Assembly (NCBI RefSeq): GCF_020667835.1
Contig: NZ_JAFMPR010000005.1
Span: 1 to 64,000 of the forward strand
DNA: 64,000 nucleotides
Source of the DNA: Roseibaca sp. Y0-43
GTDB lineage: Bacteria > Pseudomonadota > Alphaproteobacteria > Rhodobacterales > Rhodobacteraceae
Reading direction: 5' to 3'
The notes beneath the pieces were generated by a model. It ran no database searches and was not told the origin of the DNA. It worked only from the letters and a program-made list of their open reading frames with translations. The position numbers were made by a program, and so were the translations under genes. Positions 19 to 42,605 of this stretch are shown piece by piece (the first letter of the stretch is position 1; every line of letters begins with the position of its first letter).

Positions 19-3000
19 TCACAGAACCACCTCGACCCGCGCGAAAGGTCCGGGGCCGAAAATGTCCGACACTTGCGCCACCTCGATGGCAAAGGCCACC
101 CCGGCCCCATCGGCGGACAGCATCGCCGCTGTATAGGCGTATTCCGGGCGATCCAGCATTTCCTCGCGCAGCACTTGGGTGCCCAGCCGCACCCGCAGGG
201 CATAGCGCTCATAGGCTTCCGCAAGCGGCACCTCGCTCGTGCCCCACGGATCGCCCCCTTCACGGGTGCGCCGGATCCATGTCACATCCAGCCCGCCCGC
301 CCCATCGGGGCGCGCGCGCAGATGCGCCGGGCGGTACGGGCGCAGGCCCACGCCGCGCGCGGTCAGGGTGAAATCGCGCTGGCTTGCATCGTCAAGCGGT
401 CGGGCCGCCGGGCCGATGCGGTAGCTGCGCTCCACCCCCAGCGCATCGCGCGGCAGCGTAATCTGGCCAAGGCGATCATCCAGCACGACCACAAGCGACC
501 CCTCGGGCCAGTCCAGCGGCATGACCGCGTCCGTGCCCTGTTGGCCCCGCAGCCGGCTGCGCAGGGCGTAGGTATCGGGCGCGACCAGCTCGGCCTCGGC
601 GAATTGGAAGATCTCCCACTCTTCGCCCTGCCCGATTGCCAGCCGGTTCGCACCACCCAACACATCCAGCGGGCTGGCAGACGCCAAGCTTCCGCGCAGC
701 ATCCGTACGATCAGCGCCGGACCTTCGTCCCAGCGCCCGCTCGCGGCGGCGGGCAAGGCGCTTTGCGTCACACCAAGGCGCACGGGGGCCGCGATGAGGG
801 CCGACAGCTCGAACGTATCCTCGCCCGTCGCATGATGCAGGGCCACGGCACCGGGCCAGGCGCGGGCCGCGACGCCCAGCCATGGCGCGTGGTCCTGCTC
901 GGCCCCCGGCAGCAGCGGCAGGTCCAGCACCACGGGTTGCACGGGACCGGGTGCGGTGTAGCTGGCCACGCCCATGCCGCCGCCCGTGTCGCCAAAGCCA
1001 TAGACGCCCGGTTCCACCCGCGTGGCTTCCATCTCGCGCGGGCCGGACAGGGTGGTACGGTCGATGCGCCAAAGCGATTGGCCCGTATCCGTCACGATCT
1101 CGACCACGTCGCCCGCGCCCAAGCCAGAGGACGGCGGCAGCGCGAAGCGTGCCGTGTCGCGGGCGACGCGCGCCTCTGTCAGCCAGCGTTCCGCGATCAG
1201 CCGCGCCTCGCCATCGGGCAGCACCAGAGGCAGGTCAGAGCCGGACGCGCGCGCGGCGCTGGCATCGGGAAAGACGGCTTCGGCGGTGCGCAGGTCGAAA
1301 TCGCCCCCTTCGGTGACATAGCCCAGCCGCACCCGGCCCGCATCTTCGGCTTGCGGCGCGCGAATGCGGGTCAACTCGCCGCCATCGGCGCGCACAAGGG
1401 CATCCATCCCGATCTGCGCCACCGCGCGCCCGTCACGAGAGATGAAGCGCAACTGCCCGTCGCGTTCCACGGCATCAATACCGTAAGCCAGCATGAGCGA
1501 TTGCAACATCGCGCGCGGCGCATCGGTAGAGGCCACGGCCATGCCGCGCACCACGCCATGCACGCGGGTCACATCGACCGGCCCCAGCCCGGCGCGCGCG
1601 CAAATCTCGGCAATCACCGCATCGAGCGGTTGCGCCGTCGCGCGCCCCGTCACCCAATGCCCGCGCAGCCAGTTCGCGCCATCGGCCCACAGCGCCGTGT
1701 TGGCGGGAAACCACGGATAGGGCCGCGCGTCCCATGCCCAAAGATGGGCGCGCGACATGTCCACCATGCGCCCGCCGTAGAATTCCGAGGTCGGGTTATT
1801 GGCGGGGCGTGACCAGTAGCGATGGGTGGCGCGCACATATTGCATCTGGATCGTGTCATCTCGCCAGCCGCGCGAGAAATAGGGCGCGAAGCTTTCCGAC
1901 GATTTCGGGTCCAGAAAGACGTTGGGCTGGTTGGTGCCCCGGTCGATGGCCGCACAGCCGTACTCGGTGAACCAGATGGGCTTCGAGCGCGGCTCCCACG
2001 CGGTTTTCTGGGCCGCGCGCACACCGCCCACCCGGTCGTGATGGTCGTTTTCCCACCAGCCGCGAATATCCTTGTAGCGCCAGATCCAGTCCTCGCCCCA
2101 TTCGCTGTCGTCGCGGATGGGGGTGCGGCGCTGCTGTTCACGGTCAAGCTGGCTGGCATAGAACCAGTCATACCCCTCGCCGCCCGCGACATTGGCGGTC
2201 AGGTAGTCAAGGTTGTAGATGCTACCCCAATCGGCATCGGCATGGTCGGTGCCATCGCGCCAATCCGACAGCGGCATGTAATTGTCAATGCCGATCACGT
2301 CGATATTGGGGTCGGCCCAAAGCGGGTCCAGATGGAAGAAGCGGTCGCCCTCGGGCGTGATATAGCCGAAATATTCCGACCAGTCGGCGGCATAGGTGAT
2401 CTTGGTCTCTGGCCCCAGAAGCGCGCGCACCTCGGCGGCCAGCGCGCGCAGGGCGGCGACTGCCGGGAAGCTGTTATTCGCGCCCCGGATCTGCGTCAGC
2501 CCGCGCATTTCCGACCCGATGCAAAACGCGTCGACCCCGCCCGCGGCGGCACAAAGGGCCGCTTGGTGCAGGATGAAACGGCGGTAGCGCCAGGCTTGCG
2601 GGCCGCTATAGCTGACCGCGCCGGGCGAGATGGTGAAATCGGCGGCGGTTGCGGTGCCGAAGAAGGCCGCGACTTCGCCCTGTGCGGCGGGGGTGCCGTC
2701 GGGGCTGCCATCCTGACCCGGTGCCTTGGACGTGGTGATCCGCCCGCGCCATGGCAGAACCGGCTGGTCGGTGGCGTCGGAATAGGGGTCGGGCAGGCCG
2801 TTGCCCGCAAGCTGTTCCATCAGGATGAACGGGTAATAGACGACCTTCTGGCCACGCGCCTGCAAGGCCGCGATGGCCTCTATCACCGCGCGGTCAGAGG
2901 GGGTGCCGCCATAGACGGGCGCATCGTTCAGCAAGGGCACCTGCGGTGTTTCCGCCGCGACACGGCCCGCGACAGACCACGGGTAATCCGGGGCGTCGCG

Positions 3001-34947: not shown

Positions 34948-35783
34948 GGTCGGTTTTCTCGCCGTGGTATCGGTGGTCGGGGCGGCGCGACCCGGCCAAT
35001 CACTGCTGCATCAACGTGGCGACCTATGGGCCAAAGGGGCGGTTCACCATGACCGACCGGGGCCGCAGCGCGCTGCGCCAGTCCGAAGACGTGTTCGAGG
35101 TCGGGCCATCGTCGATGCGCTGGGACGCCGACAAGCTGGTGATCGAGGTCAATGAGATCTCCTCTCCCCCGCTCATCAGCCGGGTCCGCGGCACGATCAC
35201 GCTGCACCCCGAAGTACTGTTCGGACAGGTCCACGACCTGACGCCAGACGGCAGCCACGCATGGCAGCCCTTCGCCCCGATTGCCCGGATAGAGGTGGAC
35301 CTGTCCCCCGGCCACCGCTGGCAAGGCCACGGCTATTTCGATGCGAATTTTGGCACCGCCGCGCTGGAGGATGATTTCAACTACTGGACATGGGGCCGCT
35401 TCCCGCGCGCCCATGGGGCCACCTGTTTTTACGATGCCGTGCTGCGCGACGGGTCCGAACAATCGACCGCGCTGCATTTCCACCCCGATGGGCGGATGGA
35501 GCATATCGCGCCGCCCCCCCGCGCGCGCTTCAAGCGCAGCCTGTGGGCCGTGCGACGCGAGACGCGGGCGGATGCGGGCGTTGTGCCCCGTCAGGTGCTG
35601 CCCATGCTGGACGCGCCGTTTTATACGCGTGCTGCGGTCGAAACGGTCATTGATGGAGAGGCATCCATCGGTGTGCACGAGGCGCTCGACCTGCGCCGCT
35701 TCGCGCAACCGCTACTCAAGCCCATGCTCGCCGTCCGCGTGCCCCGCCGCGCGGGCTGGCGGTTCGAAGATGCGACGGGTTAA
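34557..35783 (+). CDS. crtC: Carotenoid 1,2-hydratase (start uncertain)
   Basis: Hydrates neurosporene or its derivatives at C-1,2. Conserved CrtC sequence begins near 34860 (NGYAWWYVDGISDCG) and continues through FIGSVFSPWYRWSGRRDPAN and HGYFDANFGTAALEDDF. The only in-frame ATG, GTG or TTG upstream of that is ATG 34557, which would add about 94 unrelated residues encoded inside crtD. The true start is therefore unclear, probably around 34830-34860. The gene overlaps crtD by 100 bp or more. Confidence 0.85.
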   Translation: MQHSSFRAAGALRPASDPAPHGGQPDHTRALRDALPAQPGGALRPVPERGDGDLPAADGTHEGRGPLSGRGGRASGGGCADGADLGRARGGSSAQRPDFTRKVGPNGYAWWYVDGISDCGSRAVSVIGFIGSVFSPWYRWSGRRDPANHCCINVATYGPKGRFTMTDRGRSALRQSEDVFEVGPSSMRWDADKLVIEVNEISSPPLISRVRGTITLHPEVLFGQVHDLTPDGSHAWQPFAPIARIEVDLSPGHRWQGHGYFDANFGTAALEDDFNYWTWGRFPRAHGATCFYDAVLRDGSEQSTALHFHPDGRMEHIAPPPRARFKRSLWAVRRETRADAGVVPRQVLPMLDAPFYTRAAVETVIDGEASIGVHEALDLRRFAQPLLKPMLAVRVPRRAGWRFEDATG

Positions 35784-35800: not shown

Positions 35801-35968
35801 CGGGCAGCGGATGGCCGGGGCCTGCCGCTGCCGTCCGTGGATATAGGCACTTTATGGCTGCCAAATCCGTCGGGCCTGCGAACGGCGCACTTGCATCAGC
35901 CGAAGCGGCTGGCCGCCGGGCCGGCCATCCGCGGCCCGTGGGGCGCTACGCGCCTGTTAACCACGGGC
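35801..35968 (+). repeat. Structured intergenic repeat, copy 1
   Basis: A 168-bp element filling most of the crtC-glyS gap. It matches 42605-42436 in opposite orientation along its full length, roughly 70-75% identical by eye. Conserved ends are CGGGCAGCGG and CGCGCCTGTTAACCACGGGC. Internal inverted repeats could fold it: an outer stem CGGATGGCCGG / CCGGCCATCCG, an inner GGAT...ATCC stem, and a terminal hairpin GCCCGTGG / CCACGGGC. No coding potential is seen. It is probably a MITE-like or structured-RNA repeat family. Confidence 0.75.
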
Positions 35969-35973
35969 ATAGG

Positions 35974-38283
35974 TCAGCCGCTCACCTTCGTCAGATCCGC
36001 CACCTGCAAACAGGTCGCGCGGATGCGGTGCAGCAGGTTCAGGCGGTTGCGCCGCACGATCTGGTTGTCGGTGTTGATCTGCACGGCCTCGAAAAACGCA
36101 TCAATCGGCGCGCGCAGGCCCGCCATGGCCTGCATGGCGCGCGCGAAATCCTCGGCCTGCATAGCGGGGGTGATCGCCGCTTCAGCGGTGTCGAGCGCGG
36201 CGAACAATGCGCGTTCTTCGCCCGTGTCCGCCAGTTTCGGGTCGGGGCCGAAGCTGTATTCCACCCCGTCCTTTTCCTCGGCTTGGCTGAGGATGTTGTT
36301 CGCCCGCTTGAACCCCTGCAACAGGTTCTCGCCATCGTCGGTTTTCAGCAGGTCCGACAGCGCCTCTGCACGTTTGACCAGAAGGGTCAGGTCGTCGTTT
36401 CCCGGCATGGCAAGGCAGGCGTCGATCACGTCATGCCGAATGCCCTGATCGCGCAGGTAGACCTTGAGGCGGTCGTGGAAGAAGGCGAGGAGGTCGGACG
36501 ACAATGAAAGCAAGGAATCGGCGTATCGCCCGGCAGATAAATCAATCGCTCTTTCGACCAGTGTCTGAAAGAGTCGTTCGTCTGACTTTACCTCTTTTAG
36601 ATCACCATCACGAAGCATTTTAGCTACAATCGAAAATTCGTTTCCAGCTGCAGAAAGATGATTGAGGGTATCCTCCAAATTTCTAAAGGACTGGAACGCG
36701 TCGTAGGCGTAGTCTCGCAATCGCTCACCATACTGCGAACGATATTGAGTCTCAAAACCCTTGACAGAAGCTGCATAGACAAAACTGAAACGCGCTGTTG
36801 ATTGGCTACCCAACACCAACCGAATTACCCCTAAAGCCGCGCGGCGCAGTGCGAAGGGGTCTTTCGAACCGGTCGGCTTCTCGTCAATCGCCCAAAAGCC
36901 GGTCAGCGTGTCCAGCTTGTCGGCCAGTGCCACGGCAACCGTCACGGGCGCGGTGGGCACATCGTCGGACGGGCCGAGGGGCGAGTAATGGTCGCGGCAG
37001 GCATCGGCAACCTCGGGCGCATAGCCGCCGCGCAAGGCATAATATCGCCCCATAACCCCTTGAAGTTCCGGGAATTCCCCTACCATCCCTGACCGCAGAT
37101 CGGCCTTCGCCACCCGCGCGGCTTGCTCTGCCATATCGGCATCTGCACCCACCAGCGGCGCAATCTCTTTCGCCAGCGCTGCGATACGCTCGATCCGGTC
37201 GGCTTGCGACCCCAGCTTGTTATGGAAGGTCACATCGGACAGCCCTGCCCCCATGCCTTCCAGACCAACATCAGAAACAAGCCGCAAGTCATTGTCCCAG
37301 AAGAATTTCGCATCCGACAGCCGTGCCGCCAAAACCTTCTGGTTACCCGCCAGAATGGTCGCGCCCTGATCCGCCGTTTCGCGGTTGGCGACCGTGACAA
37401 AGCCCACGATCTGCCCCGATTTCGGGTCGCGGACGGAAAAGAACTTCTGGTGTTCCTTCATCGAGGTTTGCAGCACCTCGGGCGGCAGGTCCAGAAACTG
37501 TTCCTCGATCCGCCCCATCAGCACCACGGGCCATTCCACCAGTCCCGCGACCTCTGCCAGCAAGCCCTTGTCCTCGACCAGATCCAACCCTTGGGCAAAG
37601 GCCATCTGGCTGGCTTCGTTCCAAATGTGGTCTGCGCGCTCTGCCGGGTCCAGAATGACCTTGGCGCGCTTTAGCTTTGCCGCGTAATCCTCGAAATTTG
37701 TGACAGAAAACGCATCTGGCGCCATGAAGCGATGCCCGCGCGTCGTGTCGCCCGACACAATGCCGTCCACGTCCAGCGGCACCATTTGCGCGCCATCCTC
37801 GCGCGACAGGATGCACAGGATGGAATGAAGCGGACGCACCCAGCGCAAAGACCCCGCGCCCCAGCGCATGGATTTGGGCCAAGGGAAGTTGCGGATCGTG
37901 CGCTCCAGCACCTCGGCCACGATCACGGGGGCTGCGCGCCCCTCGGTCGTGACGGTGGCGATATAGACCTGCCCTTTCTTGTCGTCCTGAATGCTCAGGT
38001 CGTCCATGCTCAGGCCGGTCGAGCGCAGAAAGCCCTCGATCGCCTTTTCCGGCGCGCCGACCTTCGGCCCGCGCCGTTCCTCGCGCAGGGTCGGGCTGTG
38101 GTCGGACAGGCCTTGCACCGCGAGCACCAGGCGGCGCGGCGTGGCGAAGGCCGCCGCATGGGCATAGGTCAGCCCGGCCTCGACCAGACCGTCGGTCACA
38201 AGTTTCTTCAGCGCGTCGCTGGCCCCGGCCTGCATCCGCGCCGGGATTTCCTCGGAAAAGAGTTCGATCAGAAGATCAGCCAT
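35974..38283 (-). CDS. glyS: Glycyl-tRNA synthetase beta subunit
   Basis: A 769-residue beta subunit. It starts MADLLIELFSEEIPARMQAG and has SMKEHQKFFSVRD and KDPFALRRAALGVIRL. The C-terminal DALR-like domain ends NRLNLLHRIRATCLQVADL. It is the last gene of a glyQ - DUF6446 - FkbM - glyS run. Positions 36541-36840 are about 46% GC by hand count, far below the surrounding sequence, and encode a segment (about residues 480-580) with unusual codon choice. The frame stays open, so the gene looks functional. Confidence 0.95.
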   Translation of the reverse strand: MADLLIELFSEEIPARMQAGASDALKKLVTDGLVEAGLTYAHAAAFATPRRLVLAVQGLSDHSPTLREERRGPKVGAPEKAIEGFLRSTGLSMDDLSIQDDKKGQVYIATVTTEGRAAPVIVAEVLERTIRNFPWPKSMRWGAGSLRWVRPLHSILCILSREDGAQMVPLDVDGIVSGDTTRGHRFMAPDAFSVTNFEDYAAKLKRAKVILDPAERADHIWNEASQMAFAQGLDLVEDKGLLAEVAGLVEWPVVLMGRIEEQFLDLPPEVLQTSMKEHQKFFSVRDPKSGQIVGFVTVANRETADQGATILAGNQKVLAARLSDAKFFWDNDLRLVSDVGLEGMGAGLSDVTFHNKLGSQADRIERIAALAKEIAPLVGADADMAEQAARVAKADLRSGMVGEFPELQGVMGRYYALRGGYAPEVADACRDHYSPLGPSDDVPTAPVTVAVALADKLDTLTGFWAIDEKPTGSKDPFALRRAALGVIRLVLGSQSTARFSFVYAASVKGFETQYRSQYGERLRDYAYDAFQSFRNLEDTLNHLSAAGNEFSIVAKMLRDGDLKEVKSDERLFQTLVERAIDLSAGRYADSLLSLSSDLLAFFHDRLKVYLRDQGIRHDVIDACLAMPGNDDLTLLVKRAEALSDLLKTDDGENLLQGFKRANNILSQAEEKDGVEYSFGPDPKLADTGEERALFAALDTAEAAITPAMQAEDFARAMQAMAGLRAPIDAFFEAVQINTDNQIVRRNRLNLLHRIRATCLQVADLTKVSG

Positions 38284-38292
38284 GTCAAAACC

Positions 38293-39084
38293 TCAGGCAA
38301 TCCGCGATGCGAAGGTCATGCGGCGTTTCGTGGCGGGGGCTGGCAGCAAGGTGAAGCCCGCCGCACGCAGGATTTCGGCACATTCCGCGCCGGTCTCTGC
38401 CCCGTTGCGTTCCGGCCCCGTGTCGATGGCGACATGACGGGTACGCTTCAGCACCTCTGCCGCGCCTTGCAGCACTTCGGGTTCCGCCCCTTCGGCATCC
38501 ATTTTCAGAAGCGCGATCTCGCCCAGACCGTGGCGGGCGACGACCTCATCGAGCGTTTGGGCCTGCGCCGTGAACGCGGCCACCCCTTCGCCCGGCGGCA
38601 GGAAGATGGAACTGTCGGCCTTGCCGGGCGCGCTGTAGAAGGTCAACTCGCACGCCTCTTTCCACAGGATCACACAATCGGTGGTGATCTGGGGCAGCTT
38701 GGCGGTGTTGGCGTTCAGACACTCGACCACGACCGGGTCGCCGTCCAGACACAAGACCTGCGCGCCCTGACCCGCCGCCAGCAGTGCGAAATCGCCCACA
38801 TTCGCGCCGATGTCGATGACCGTGTCGCCGGGGGTCAGCATAAAGGTGCCGTCCAGCCCGAATTCGGCGGCCAGACGCTGCATCCGCGCCGCCCAGCCCC
38901 GCCGATAGGACCGCCACAGCAGCGCCGAGGGCACGCGCAGCCGATGGCCTTGAATATCAAGGTCGAATTGCGGCCCGTTGCGAGAGACACGGACCGGCCT
39001 CAGCCCGCCAAGCCCCGTTTGCGACACCACGTTATGCAGCGCCAGATGCACGCGGTCGCGCAGGCGCAGATCGAAACTGTCCAT
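38293..39084 (-). CDS. FkbM-family SAM-dependent methyltransferase
   Basis: A 263-residue methyltransferase with the FkbM layout: GDTVIDIGANVGDFALLAAG for SAM binding and LLKMDAEGAEPEVLQGA. I chose ATG 39084 (MDSFDLRLRDRV), which overlaps the upstream stop by one base (TGATG). Its substrate is unknown. It sits between the two glycyl-tRNA synthetase genes. Confidence 0.88.
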   Translation of the reverse strand: MDSFDLRLRDRVHLALHNVVSQTGLGGLRPVRVSRNGPQFDLDIQGHRLRVPSALLWRSYRRGWAARMQRLAAEFGLDGTFMLTPGDTVIDIGANVGDFALLAAGQGAQVLCLDGDPVVVECLNANTAKLPQITTDCVILWKEACELTFYSAPGKADSSIFLPPGEGVAAFTAQAQTLDEVVARHGLGEIALLKMDAEGAEPEVLQGAAEVLKRTRHVAIDTGPERNGAETGAECAEILRAAGFTLLPAPATKRRMTFASRIA

Positions 39085-39596
39085 CACGGTGTCACCTCTG
39101 CGGGCGGGGGCGGGCAGCCGGGCGGGACCGGGTCGCCATCGAAAAACGCGGTGCCGCAGGGGTTGATCTGGTGCCACGCATAGGCGCGCCCGTCGGGGAA
39201 GATCGCGGCCACGCGGTCAATGCCATAGACAAGGTTCGCCTGTGCTGTGACGGCCTGCGCCTCGCCCGCTTCTAGCGCCGCGCCGATGGCGCCCGCGTCG
39301 AAACAGTCGAACCAGCCGGGCGCGTTGAGCGGCGTGGCACCGTCATAAGGTGCGAAGGCCGAGGCGGGTTCCGCCACGGTAAAGCACGCCCGGAACCGGA
39401 TGGGAGAGCTGTTCGCGTCGATCCCTTCGAACCCGGTCACGGCCACCTCGCTTGCCGCGTCTTCGCCCGCATAGGTCAGACCAATGCTGTCTTGATCCGG
39501 CAGCACATCGTAGTAGCCGTATACCTGCAAATACCACATGCCCGCACCGCCCAGCACGGCGCTGGCCAGAAGCAGGACAACCAGAATTCGGCCCAT
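39084..39596 (-). CDS. DUF6446-like membrane-anchored protein
   Basis: A 170-residue protein with an N-terminal membrane anchor or uncleaved signal ([19 protein letters not shown]) and a periplasmic domain. Three cysteines (FRACFTV, FDCFDAG, INPCGTA) might form a disulfide. I recall the DUF6446 family next to glyQ in other Rhodobacteraceae. Start ATG 39596 overlaps the glyQ stop by one base. Function unknown. Confidence 0.78.
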   Translation of the reverse strand: MGRILVVLLLASAVLGGAGMWYLQVYGYYDVLPDQDSIGLTYAGEDAASEVAVTGFEGIDANSSPIRFRACFTVAEPASAFAPYDGATPLNAPGWFDCFDAGAIGAALEAGEAQAVTAQANLVYGIDRVAAIFPDGRAYAWHQINPCGTAFFDGDPVPPGCPPPPAEVTP

Positions 39597-40528
39597 CACG
39601 CGCCCCCCGCTTCGGTCTGCACGAAAGCATCGGCGCACATTTTCGCGAGCGCCCGCACGCGGCCAATATAGGCTTGGCGTTCGGTCACGGAAATGACGCC
39701 GCGCGCGTCCAGCAGGTTGAACAGGTGGCTGGCCTTGATGCACTGGTCATAGGCCGGGTGCGCCATGATGATGCTGCGCCCCGCGCTGTCGGTGGCCGGG
39801 GCGGACAGGATGCGCTGGCATTCGGCCTCGGCATCCTTGAAGTGCTGTAACAGCGTGTCGGTGTCGGCCTGATCGAAATTCCAGCGGGAATATTCCTGTT
39901 CTGTCTGGCGAAAGACATCGCCGTATTTTAGCGGGATCGGGGCATCGGGCGCGTTGAAGGGCATGTCCATGACATGATCCACGCCCAGCACATACATGGC
40001 CAAGCGCTCCAGCCCATAGGTCAACTCGCCCGAGACGGGCTTGCAATCATGCCCGCCAACCTGCTGGAAATAGGTGAATTGCGACACTTCCATCCCGTCG
40101 CACCACACTTCCCAACCCAAACCCCAAGCGCCAAGGGTCGGGGATTCCCAGTCATCTTCCACAAAGCGGATGTCATGCAGCGCGTCGTCGATCCCGATCG
40201 CGCGCAGGCTGCCAAGATACAGCTCTTGCAGGTCGGGCGGCGAGGGTTTGATAATGACCTGGTATTGGTAGTAATGCTGAAGCCGGTTCGGGTTCTCGCC
40301 ATAGCGGCCATCGGTCGGGCGGCGCGAGGGCTGAACATAGGCCGCAGCCCATGCCTTGGAGCCCAGCGCGCGCAGCGTGGTCGCCGGGTGAAAGGTGCCC
40401 GCGCCCACTTCCATGTCATAGGGTTGCAGCACCGCGCAGCCTTTCGACGCCCAGTAATTCTGCAACCTCAGGATGATTTCCTGAAAGCATTGTGGCTTTT
40501 GTGAACGGTTTTCAGCGGCTTCCGCCAT
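39596..40528 (-). CDS. glyQ: Glycyl-tRNA synthetase alpha subunit
   Basis: A 310-residue catalytic subunit of the bacterial heterotetrameric enzyme. It carries [35 protein letters not shown] and [20 protein letters not shown], all hallmarks. The start at 40528 ([13 protein letters not shown]) is at the homology boundary. The much longer open frame upstream is antisense to the divergent gene at 40658. Confidence 0.96.
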
Positions 40529-40657
40529 GTCGGCCCCTTGCCATGTCAGAGCAATCTCGTAAAGCTGCGTCTGCATAGGCAAGCATCCGTCAAGGGTCAA
40601 CGCCGAAACCGGGGGCCAACGCCCCGGACAAATGAATATGGGAAGGGATTGGACCTT

Positions 40658-42421
40658 ATGACACGGTATTTCAGCACGGCGGCCTTTCTGGTGGCCAGCG
40701 TTTCCGGGCTGGCCATGGGGCCGGCGCTGGCACAAGACAGCCGTTGGGTGCAACTGGAAGCGCATCGCGAGCTGGACGTGGCCTTGCAACGCGCGCAGGA
40801 TTACCAGCAAAGCATCGGCAATGTCAGCGGGTTCCAATTGCCGTCGGACTGGTATGCGCTCAGCCTTGGCCCGTTCGAGACCGATACCGACGCGTTCGAA
40901 GTGCGCCGCCAGCTGCGCGCAGAGCGCGCGATCCCGGCGGATGCCTTCGTGTCGAATGGCGAGAATTACGGCGCGCGGTTCTTCCCGACCGATGGCGCGG
41001 CCCCTGCCCCAGTGGCGACACCCGCTCCGGCCGCAGAGCCGGAGCCTCTGGCCGCCGCCGACCCGATCCCAGAGCCGGAACCTGAACCCGAACCCGAGGA
41101 AACGCTGCGCGAGGCGCAGGCCTCCGAGCGCGCGCTTGACCGAGACCAGCGCGCCGAATTGCAGACCGCGCTGCAATGGTTCGGCTTCTACACCCAGCGC
41201 ATCGACGCGGCTTTCGGCCCTGGCACGCGCCGGTCCATGGCCGATTGGCAAGCCGCCCAAGGCTATGACGATACGGGCGTTCTGACCACCCGCCAGCGCG
41301 CCGAATTGCTGGACGCCTACCAAGGCGAGTTGGCCGCTTTGGGGATGCAGACCATCCGCGACGAGGATGCGGGCATAGAGATTGCCCTGCCCTTGGCGAT
41401 GGTTGAATTCGACCGCCACGAAGCGCCGTTCTCGCATTTCCCGTCCAAAGATGACAGTGGCGTGCAGGTGCTTTTGCTGTCGCAGCCGGGCAATCAGGCC
41501 ACGCTCTTTGGCCTGTATGAGATCATGCAAACCCTTGAAATCGTGCCGCTGGAAGGAGAGCGCGAGCGCGGGTCGAACAGCTTTACCCTGACCGGCCAGA
41601 ATGACGAGCTGCGCTCGCACACTTTCGCGCAATTCCGCAACGGGCAGATCAAGGGCTATACGCTGGTCTGGACGCCCGATCGTGACGAACAAATGGCTCG
41701 CGTGCTGCCGATGATGCAGGAAAGCTTTTCGACCTTCGGCGGCACCCTGCCCGAAAGCACGGGCCAAGCCAGTCAAGTCGCGCGCTCGGCGCTTCTGGCC
41801 GGGCTGAGCGTGCGGCGCCCTGATTACTCGCGCTCGGGTTTCTACATCGACGCGACCGGCACCACGGTCACGACCGCTGCCGCCGTCGCGCAATGCGAGC
41901 GTGTCACCATAGACGAGGCCTATACCGCCCGCATCCGCGCCGTCGATGAGGCGCTGAACATCGCCGTTCTGGAACCCGAAACCCCGCTGGTGCCGCTGGC
42001 CTTCGCGCAATTCGCCGAAGGCGAGATGCCGATGGGGCAGGAAGTGACCATCTCGGGCTTTTCCTTCGAGGATATGCTGACGCGCCCCGTCCTGACCTTC
42101 GGGCGGCTGGATGCGATGGGTGGTCTGAACGGTGAAGAGGGCGTGTTGCGCCTGAACGCCACGGTCGCGCAGGGCGATCTGGGCGGGCCGGTTTTCGGGC
42201 CAACGGGCGCGGTTCTGGGCCTGTTGTCGGGCCAGCCCAGCTTGGAAAACCGCCAGCTACCGCCAGAGGTGAACTACGCCGTGTCTGCCCCCGCCATCCG
42301 CGCGTTTTTGGGCGAGAACGGTGTGTCCAGCGGCACCTTGCGCGAGGGCGTGACGGTCACGCCGGAGCATCTGACCCGCGTGGCGGGCGATCTGACGGTG
42401 ATGGTGTCCTGCTGGAATTGA
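40658..42421 (+). CDS. Secreted SPOR-like / peptidoglycan-binding / degenerate trypsin-like protein
   Basis: A 587-residue exported protein. Signal peptide: residues 1-27 (ending PALAQD). A SPOR-like repeat region is at ~30-110, a Pro/Glu-rich linker ([10 protein letters not shown]) at ~135-150, and a peptidoglycan-binding domain at ~160-220 ([20 protein letters not shown]). A middle region is at ~235-380 and a trypsin-like domain at ~390-587. The serine motif reads GDLGGPVFG (Leu for Ser, about residue 507), the His region reads TTAAAVAQC and the Asp region LNIAVLEPE. All three triad residues are missing, so it is probably a non-catalytic envelope protein. Confidence 0.85.
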
Positions 42422-42435
42422 GTAGCGCGCACAAA

Positions 42436-42605
42436 GCCCGTGGTTAACAGGCGCGGGACGCGCCCCACGGGCAGCGGCGGGCCGCCCCAGAGGCCTGCCG
42501 CTTTGGTAGCCGCAGGTGCGCGGCTTGCAGATCATACGGATATGGCTACCATAATGCGCCCATATCCACTGGTCTAGGCGGCAGGCCGCGGCCCGCCGCT
42601 GCCCG
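42436..42605 (-). repeat. Structured intergenic repeat, copy 2
   Basis: A 170-bp element in the 42422-42644 gap, opposite in orientation to the copy at 35801-35968. On the minus strand it has a perfect 17-bp pairing GGGCAGCGGCGGGCCGC with its complement, a second stem GGCCTGCCGC / GCGGCAGGCC, an inner GGATATGG / CCATATCC stem, and the GCCCGTGG / CCACGGGC terminal hairpin. Several arm positions differ from copy 1 on both sides of the stem, so pairing is kept. The rest of the gap shows no gene. Confidence 0.75.

What the first reader, a model, noticed from the sequence alone, without database searches (positions are those of the whole stretch)
35801..42605. Inverted pair of a ~170-bp structured intergenic repeat
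The gaps at 35801-35968 and 42436-42605 hold the same element in opposite orientation, flanking the glyS-to-protease block. Both ends and the centre (GGATAT...TTATGG) are conserved. I do not recognise it as a described family. It may be a MITE, a structured RNA or a chromosomal domain signal, and the inverted pair could recombine to flip the 6.5-kb segment.
Basis: seen in the sequence. Interest (0 to 1): 0.7.

Follow-up and report, generated by a model that had tools for sequence, protein, structure and literature searches.

The report
Folded invertible repeats between converging genes
The two copies belong to a scattered, apparently undescribed family of about 165-base folded DNA repeats that multiply in some marine and soda-lake bacteria, settle mostly where two genes run toward each other, often face opposite ways in related species, and can serve as crossover points that flip large pieces of DNA.

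Summary
The inverted pair is real (75% over 153 nt) and belongs to a family. A covariance model finds 16 copies in this genome, 0 to more than 100 in other species of the genus, and none in 141 other genomes sampled across the class. Other genera of the family hold copies. Neither Rfam nor a text search for the core knows it. Intact copies share one plan: a conserved 20-nt core inside two nested stems, plus a 3' hairpin. Stem sequences change but stay paired (158 compensatory cells against 41 in shuffles). Mismatches are G.T more often than A.C (41:6; 118:18), so one strand's fold seems selected. Copies sit mostly between converging genes (55 of 91; 13 of 19 by annotation). At shared sites they face opposite ways in 10 of 18 comparisons; many such sites are empty in other relatives. 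In plasmids of another genus, a 32.6-kb inversion has a crossover inside the element. Of 8 copy-rich genomes, 7 lack Y1 transposase and 6 lack reverse transcriptase. Best reading: a new MITE/ERIC-like mobile structured repeat, mobiliser unknown.

The parts
35801..35968 (+). Copy 1 of the element, between the stop of an uncharacterised + strand ORF (ends 35783) and the stop of glyS (35974, - strand)
35806..35818 (+). Copy 1, outer stem strand A (preceded by the P strand GGGC, 35802-35805)
   Evidence: letters checked; structure
35821..35829 (+). Copy 1, inner stem strand B
35850..35869 (+). Copy 1, conserved core CTTTATGGCTGCCAAATCCG
35904..35912 (+). Copy 1, inner stem strand B' (one mismatch to B)
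35921..35933 (+). Copy 1, outer stem strand A' (one mismatch to A)
35934..35968 (+). Copy 1, 3' hairpin: Q (35934-35941), inner hairpin, TGTTAA, P' (35961-35968)
42436..42605 (-). Copy 2 of the element, between the stop of the trypsin-like protease gene (42421, + strand) and the stop of the oligoendopeptidase F (M3) gene (42645, - strand)
42537..42556 (-). Copy 2, conserved core CATTATGGTAGCCATATCCG

Best explanation
The pair are two members of a new family of non-autonomous, structured, mobile intergenic repeats of Rhodobacteraceae, of the same general kind as ERIC, YPAL and Correia elements. The element is a roughly 165-nt imperfect palindrome: outer stem A:A', inner stem B:B', a conserved 20-nt core left unpaired in the consensus, and a 3' hairpin. 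It multiplies in some lineages by an unidentified function acting in trans, and it is lost or never acquired in others. Insertions persist mainly between converging genes, where no promoter is hit and where a strong two-way hairpin could close both transcripts. Selection keeps the fold of one strand (the core strand), so a folded single strand, most likely RNA, is read by something. Inverted copies can serve as crossover points for DNA inversion, and single copies often lie reversed at the same site in related species. SHOWN: family, structure, strand asymmetry, patchy copy number, filled and empty sites, opposite orientations at shared sites, and one plasmid inversion with a crossover in the element. 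INFERRED: mobility in trans, RNA as the selected form, and a role in ending transcripts.
For: Copies: 16 in this genome; 78, the scoring cap, in each of G007, G012, G018 and G021 (109 in G021 with a higher cap); 0 in 8 of 37 genomes of the genus. Structure on 60 diverse copies: 93.3% of cells paired against 77.7% in shuffles, 15 of 20 pairs covarying, 158 compensatory cells against 40.9, at most 34 in a slid register. The alternative two-hairpin fold is weaker (87.2%, 94 cells). Mismatches in those 20 pairs are G.T 41: A.C 6, with 75 others; a looser count on 103 non-redundant copies, whose two stem windows overlap, gives 118:18. In copies outside the model seed it is 14:0 (12 copies of G021) and 7:0 (6 plasmid copies). 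Context: 91 of 103 copies with both neighbours called are convergent 55, tandem 34, divergent 2; the 19 model hits on annotated plasmid stretches (against the tables) are convergent 13, tandem 6, divergent 0. Of 26 syntenic comparisons at 11 own sites, 16 are empty, 4 hold the element, 3 hold remnants and 3 hold another insert. Orientation at shared sites: 8 same, 10 opposite. At shared sites stems are 89-92% identical and spacers 61-67% (17 pairs). A 32.6-kb plasmid inversion has a crossover inside the element.
Against: No autonomous partner was found. Of the 8 copy-rich genomes (33 copies or more), 7 have no Y1 transposase hit and G021 has one below cut-off; 6 have no reverse transcriptase, but G021 and G022 do. 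No clear target-site duplication was seen. No transcription data were available. No promoter-like or intrinsic-terminator-like site was found in either window gap, which argues against ordinary U-tract termination. Tandem copies show no preference for the sense of the upstream gene (14 sense, 20 antisense), which a simple 3'-UTR RNA would be expected to show. Several empty sites have almost no spacer and no evident hairpin, so the element is not required there. Only 2 of 9 reversed pairs scored show clearly homologous spacers, so replacement rather than inversion is possible at the others.
Confidence: 0.72

Rival explanations
1. Host-maintained bidirectional transcription-end or insulator element: converging genes need it, and the element has been recruited as their shared 3' end.
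For: Enrichment between converging genes (55 of 91; 13 of 19 on annotated plasmids). A number of copies fill the gap nearly from stop codon to stop codon (distances). At one site (L030) three relatives lacking the element carry an ordinary hairpin there instead, by eye. Stems are conserved at shared sites.
Against: No U-tract terminator in either window gap. Other orthologous gaps are empty with no evident replacement hairpin. Eight of 37 congeners have none. Neutral repeats also accumulate between converging genes, as reported for REPs (PMC3733652, passages).
Confidence: 0.3
2. Stand-alone structured non-coding RNA or cis-regulatory RNA with a conserved active core, not a mobile element.
For: Covariation with a nearly invariant core and strand-specific wobble pairs.
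Against: Up to 109 copies in one genome, no promoter-like site in the two window gaps, no orientation preference relative to genes, and presence/absence between close species.
Confidence: 0.1
3. REP/REPIN or IS200/IS605-type single-strand DNA element moved by a Y1 (HUH) transposase.
For: Folded strand selected; the ends P and P' share sequence and both can pair with an internal strand Q (sharing of 4 nt in 81 of 93 copies against a shuffled mean of 47.5), which recalls guide and cleavage-site pairing (the comparison is from memory).
Against: PF01797 is found in 4 of 37 genomes, only 2 over the cut-off (G001, G029), and neither is copy-rich. No significant leading/lagging bias in orientation: 45:61 in G021 (p 0.14) and 14:19 in G022 (p 0.49), with origin and terminus inferred from 20 skew samples each.
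Confidence: 0.05
4. Double-stranded DNA signal (protein site or cruciform for chromosome domains), with the palindrome homogenised by template switching.
For: The core is nearly a dyad (TATGGCnGCCAWA); stems are long and perfect in some copies (26 bp in L148).
Against: A double-strand role predicts equal G.T and A.C mismatches unless mutation is strand-biased; 41:6 was seen. Copies are clustered and occur on plasmids.
Confidence: 0.1

Closest known systems
ERIC (enterobacterial repetitive intergenic consensus)
   Same: About 127-bp intergenic imperfect palindrome, long stem-loop, variable copy number between taxa, no proven mobiliser (PMC2229807, PMC2267715 and PMC10969869, passages)
   Different: Window copy 1 has no match in the E. 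coli collection, and E. coli carries ERIC. TSD and a 7-bp TIR are reported for ERIC, not seen here. ERIC is given as a single long stem-loop; here two nested stems, an open core and a separate 3' hairpin
YPAL (Yersinia palindromic sequences)
   Same: 168-169 bp, intergenic, predicted shared secondary structure (PMC2267715, passages)
   Different: Described from Yersinia and Erwinia (PMC2229807); sequences not compared here
Correia/NEMIS elements of Neisseria
   Same: 107-155 bp, folded transcripts (PMC2229807); reported to undergo inversion (PMC10969869, passages)
   Different: 24-bp TIR and target-site duplication reported; no duplication identified here
REP / REPIN
   Same: Palindromic, located between converging and unidirectional genes, G.T pairs in stems taken as a sign of transcription (PMC3733652, passages)
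   Different: 20-40 bp units with GTAG or CGTC tags (abstract in the listing) and, for REPINs, RAYT transposases; here 165 nt, a conserved core, and no Y1 transposase over cut-off in the copy-rich genomes
CIR of Caulobacter and Brucella
   Same: Alphaproteobacterial intergenic repeat without TIR (PMC2229807 table)
   Different: Model R1 matched none of 141 other genomes sampled across the class (unnamed, so whether Caulobacter or Brucella was among them is unknown); CIR sequence itself not compared

Membership tests
MITE (miniature inverted-repeat transposable element) | Small non-coding repeat, multi-copy, with terminal inverted repeats | tested here: met
   165 nt, up to 109 copies in one genome, outer stem A:A'; but the A:A' repeats are followed by a 3' hairpin, so they are not exactly terminal
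MITE (miniature inverted-repeat transposable element) | Target-site duplication | tested here: inconclusive
   Filled and empty sites compared at 76-93% flank identity; no clear duplication by eye, but the flanks are too diverged to exclude one
MITE (miniature inverted-repeat transposable element) | Ends shared with an autonomous transposon | not tested
   Only Y1 transposase and reverse transcriptase were sought; no systematic search for DDE elements with matching ends
REP/REPIN | RAYT (Y1) transposase in the genome | tested here: not met
   PF01797 over cut-off in 2 of 37 genomes, neither copy-rich; none in this genome
REP/REPIN | 20-40 bp palindrome with GTAG or CGTC tag | tested here: not met
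   165-nt unit with a different architecture
ERIC | Sequence similarity to the enterobacterial element | tested here: not met
   No blastn match of window copy 1 in E. coli genomes at E 0.01
Known structured RNA (Rfam 15) | Match to a covariance model | tested here: not met
   No hit at E<=1 overlaps the two window gaps or the element in 8 loci with distant copies; the 8 hits listed in all lie elsewhere and far below gathering scores
Intrinsic terminator | GC hairpin followed by a T run | tested here: not met
   0 found in both window gaps by a simple scan; other copies not scanned

The most novel reading that the evidence does not exclude
A new class of mobile element whose movement and in-place flipping are directed by its own folded strand. 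The internal strand Q pairs in turn with the two direct end repeats P and P', the core is the recognition site of an unknown enzyme, and that enzyme is neither a Y1 transposase nor a reverse transcriptase.
Probability: 0.12. Interest if true: 0.85.

Novelty: new variant of a known kind. Interest (0 to 1): 0.6.

Why it matters
It gives Rhodobacteraceae, an abundant bacterial family of sea and soda lakes, a structured mobile repeat that seems to have been passed over: the plasmid rows shown list no annotated feature under it (that gene table is incomplete and holds no RNA genes). Family-level covariation, wobble asymmetry and filled, empty and flipped orthologous sites make it a good natural experiment on how palindromic repeats spread and what they do at gene ends. 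It also marks crossover points for plasmid and perhaps chromosome inversions.

Tried and rejected
Rejected: known RNA family; REPIN/RAYT; a reverse-transcriptase-borne element as the general case, since RVT_1 is missing from this genome and from G007, G010, G012, G018, G020 and G028, though present in G021 and G022; lagging-strand ssDNA transposition by orientation bias; phage origin (0 exact core hits in viral contigs; no phage match for one distant copy); ERIC by sequence; an intrinsic terminator in the window gaps. The two-hairpin fold was tested and is weaker than the nested one.

Led nowhere: blastn of window copy 1 in plasmids (no match; more distant copies did match); text searches for the core (0 papers) and for repeats of Rhodobacteraceae or Roseobacter; a search for a clean target duplication.

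Limits: the gene caller is home-made and missed the ORF ending at 35783. One search kept 138 of 177 core matches by stem criteria; by eye 25 of the 39 rejected are chance coding hits (pntA-like genes, Psychrobacter and others) and 14 look like diverged or truncated true copies. Fifteen of the 103 non-redundant copies were set aside by hand before alignment A2, and a 74% identity cut left 60. In one search the two stem windows overlap, so some positions may count twice; one search is the clean count. One search used all 177 with only a stem-score filter, so its totals (184:30) may include chance segments. Strand-biased mutation could add to the asymmetry, and related copies are not independent. 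Copies in G019 and G015 were picked because their core matched, so the orientation tally says nothing about losses there; its 18 comparisons share genomes, include truncated copies (L219, L294) and one with a single aligned flank (L305), and leave out one truncated reversed remnant (L351). One listed pair (L034-L301) had no shared flanks and was not counted. In one search, 30 of the 41 matches had loci and were examined; 4 of the 30 had lost synteny on one side.

Full report
CHECK OF THE OBSERVATION. The two gaps hold inverted copies of one element: 153 nt at 75% plus 29 nt at 86%, blastn E 2.5e-29. A 20-nt core pattern is found twice in the window at up to 3 mismatches, with 0.03 expected from 100 shuffles. 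The block between them runs from glyS (PF02092) to a trypsin-like protease (PF13365), and an M3 oligoendopeptidase lies beyond copy 2. Each copy lies between two converging reading frames; the one left of copy 1 has no Pfam hit.

THE FAMILY. blastn and a core-pattern search led to 16 copies in this genome. A covariance model (R1) built from 60 diverse copies also reports 16. In 37 genomes of the genus the counts run from 0 (8 genomes) to 78, the scoring cap, in four of them; G021 has 109 with a higher cap. Across the family the exact core pattern hits 24 of 394 genomes, this one included, with 2 reversed-pattern control hits; of the 10 loci read, 5 were a coding gene rather than the element, so the true number of genomes is lower. 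Named hosts of real copies include Roseinatronobacter, Roseovarius, Ruegeria, Antarcticimicrobium, Alloyangia, Marivita, Sediminimonas, Histidinibacterium and Psychromarinibacter. Hits in Psychrobacter, Angelakisella and Thalassotalea are chance hits. A sample of 142 genomes of the class, from 140 genera, gave only this genome (stricter filters; one of the others was of the same family). Copies also lie on plasmids of Salipiger (4 records), Pseudosulfitobacter (90 records) and Roseinatronobacter sp. S2; the rows shown list no annotated feature under them.

ANATOMY. Reading 5' to 3': a short strand P; stem strand A; a GGGG-like turn; stem strand B; about 20 variable nt; the core CTTTATGSCAGCCAARTCCG; about 35 variable nt; B'; a turn; A'; then a 3' hairpin made of Q, a small inner hairpin, TTGATT or similar, and P'. 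Spacer lengths change little although their sequence does. In 81 of 93 copies with a recognisable 3' stem, at least 4 nt of P' recur in the 5' flank; shuffling the flanks among copies gives a mean of 47.5 and at most 57 of 93, and for the 36 copies whose P' lacks GCGC the count is 29 against 9.6 (6 of the 99 copies with a located outer stem had no 3' stem). So P and P' are direct repeats that can compete for Q.

THE FOLD IS SELECTED, ON ONE STRAND. On 60 copies, stems A:A' and B:B' form standard pairs in 93.3% of cells (77.7% in shuffles); 15 of 20 pairs have changes on both sides, and 158 cells are compensatory (40.9 in shuffles; at most 34 in slid registers). One pair is GC 34, CG 17, AU 9 with no failure in 60. 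The rival fold into two local hairpins scores lower. The first alignment of the 16 own copies agrees: 14 of 26 pairs have compensatory changes. In those 20 pairs non-Watson-Crick cells are G.T 41, A.C 6 and other 75. If only the duplex mattered, the first two would be about equal. A looser count on 103 copies gives 118:18. Copies outside the model seed give 14:0 (G021) and 7:0 (plasmids), and by distinct sequence contexts the ratio is 72:22, p 2e-7 (which includes unfiltered matches). Strand-biased mutation could add to this.

WHERE IT SITS. With a home-made gene caller, 91 of 103 copies had both neighbours called and no gene over the core: 55 convergent, 14 tandem sense, 20 tandem antisense, 2 divergent; 6 lacked a neighbour and 6 had a called gene over the core. 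On annotated plasmid stretches the 19 model hits, some of them the same site in two strains, are 13 convergent and 6 tandem. Neutral repeats avoid promoters in the same way, as reported for REPs (PMC3733652, passages), so location alone does not prove a terminator. The simple scan found no U-tract terminator or promoter in either window gap.

GAIN, LOSS AND REVERSAL. At 11 own sites, 26 comparisons with three relatives kept both flanks: 16 empty, 4 with the element, 3 remnants, 3 other inserts; 4 further comparisons had lost synteny on one side (30 of 41 matches examined). At shared sites across G019, G015, G452, G025 and G034 the element faces the same way in 8 comparisons and the opposite way in 10. 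At two reversed sites the variable spacers are more alike than in 95% of 391 unrelated pairs, so these look like true in-place inversions; for the other seven reversed pairs scored they are not, so replacement by another copy is possible. Stems at shared sites are 89-92% identical and spacers 61-67%. Inversion of a Correia element is mentioned in a review (PMC10969869, passages).

CROSSOVERS. Two Pseudosulfitobacter plasmids about 97.5% alike differ by a 32.6-kb inversion whose ends lie in gaps that hold inverted copies. Of the two new junctions I read one base by base: it switches parents inside the element's 3' hairpin, at the end of a 39-nt tract that the two parent copies share. At two other sites one strain has this element and the other has a related second type in the opposite orientation. 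The window pair shares only 20 identical nt in a row, and among the gaps read I saw no relative with this block flipped.

MECHANISM. Patchy copy number with presence and absence at orthologous sites points to a mobile repeat. Its mobiliser is unknown: of the 8 copy-rich genomes (33 copies or more) 7 have no Y1 transposase hit and G021 has one below cut-off; 6 have no reverse transcriptase while G021 and G022 do; copies show no significant leading/lagging bias. The strand-specific fold together with indifference to gene direction suggests that the fold serves the element itself or an RNA made from either neighbour by read-through. I take RNA as likelier than ssDNA, by inference only.

COMPARISON. 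It works like ERIC, YPAL, Correia and REP elements (passages of PMC2229807, PMC2267715, PMC3733652 and PMC10969869) but fails the sequence test for ERIC, the transposase test for REPIN and all Rfam models. MITE membership is open: a target duplication was not seen and a matching autonomous element was not sought systematically. Statements that it is not in print rest in an open-access library only.

Noticed in passing
L286 about 1206-1375 (- strand); L287 about 2200-2400 (- strand); plasmid NZ_CP086805.1: A second element type with the same plan but another core (CACTTTATTTCTAATCTTTGGCG) lies at sites where another strain has the first type in the opposite direction; the two types also occur back to back.
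   Followed up: partly
L065, L066, L067 (G007): In G007 copies stand in tandem about 260 bp apart, and the spacer between them is repeated too.
   Followed up: partly
downstream of glyS in L224, L225, L226, L228, L230, L240, L241, L245: A different short palindrome (GTAGGGTGSGTG...CACSCACCCTAC) occupies the same gap in other species of the genus.
   Followed up: no
L222, L238, L239 and others versus L198, L211, L215, L216: The ORF beginning MPKYLTLTDYAQITG follows glyS in many congeners but follows the protease in four (G014, G005, G028, G006), read by eye, so the ends of the glyS-protease block are rearrangement points in the genus.
   Followed up: no
L131, L165, L091, L047: Some copies carry another small hairpin inserted in the A' arm.
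   Followed up: no
G022 chromosome 3028-3044 kb, 770-802 kb, 401-463 kb: Copies are clustered along the chromosome (four within 16 kb in one place) and none was found on the other five contigs.
   Followed up: partly
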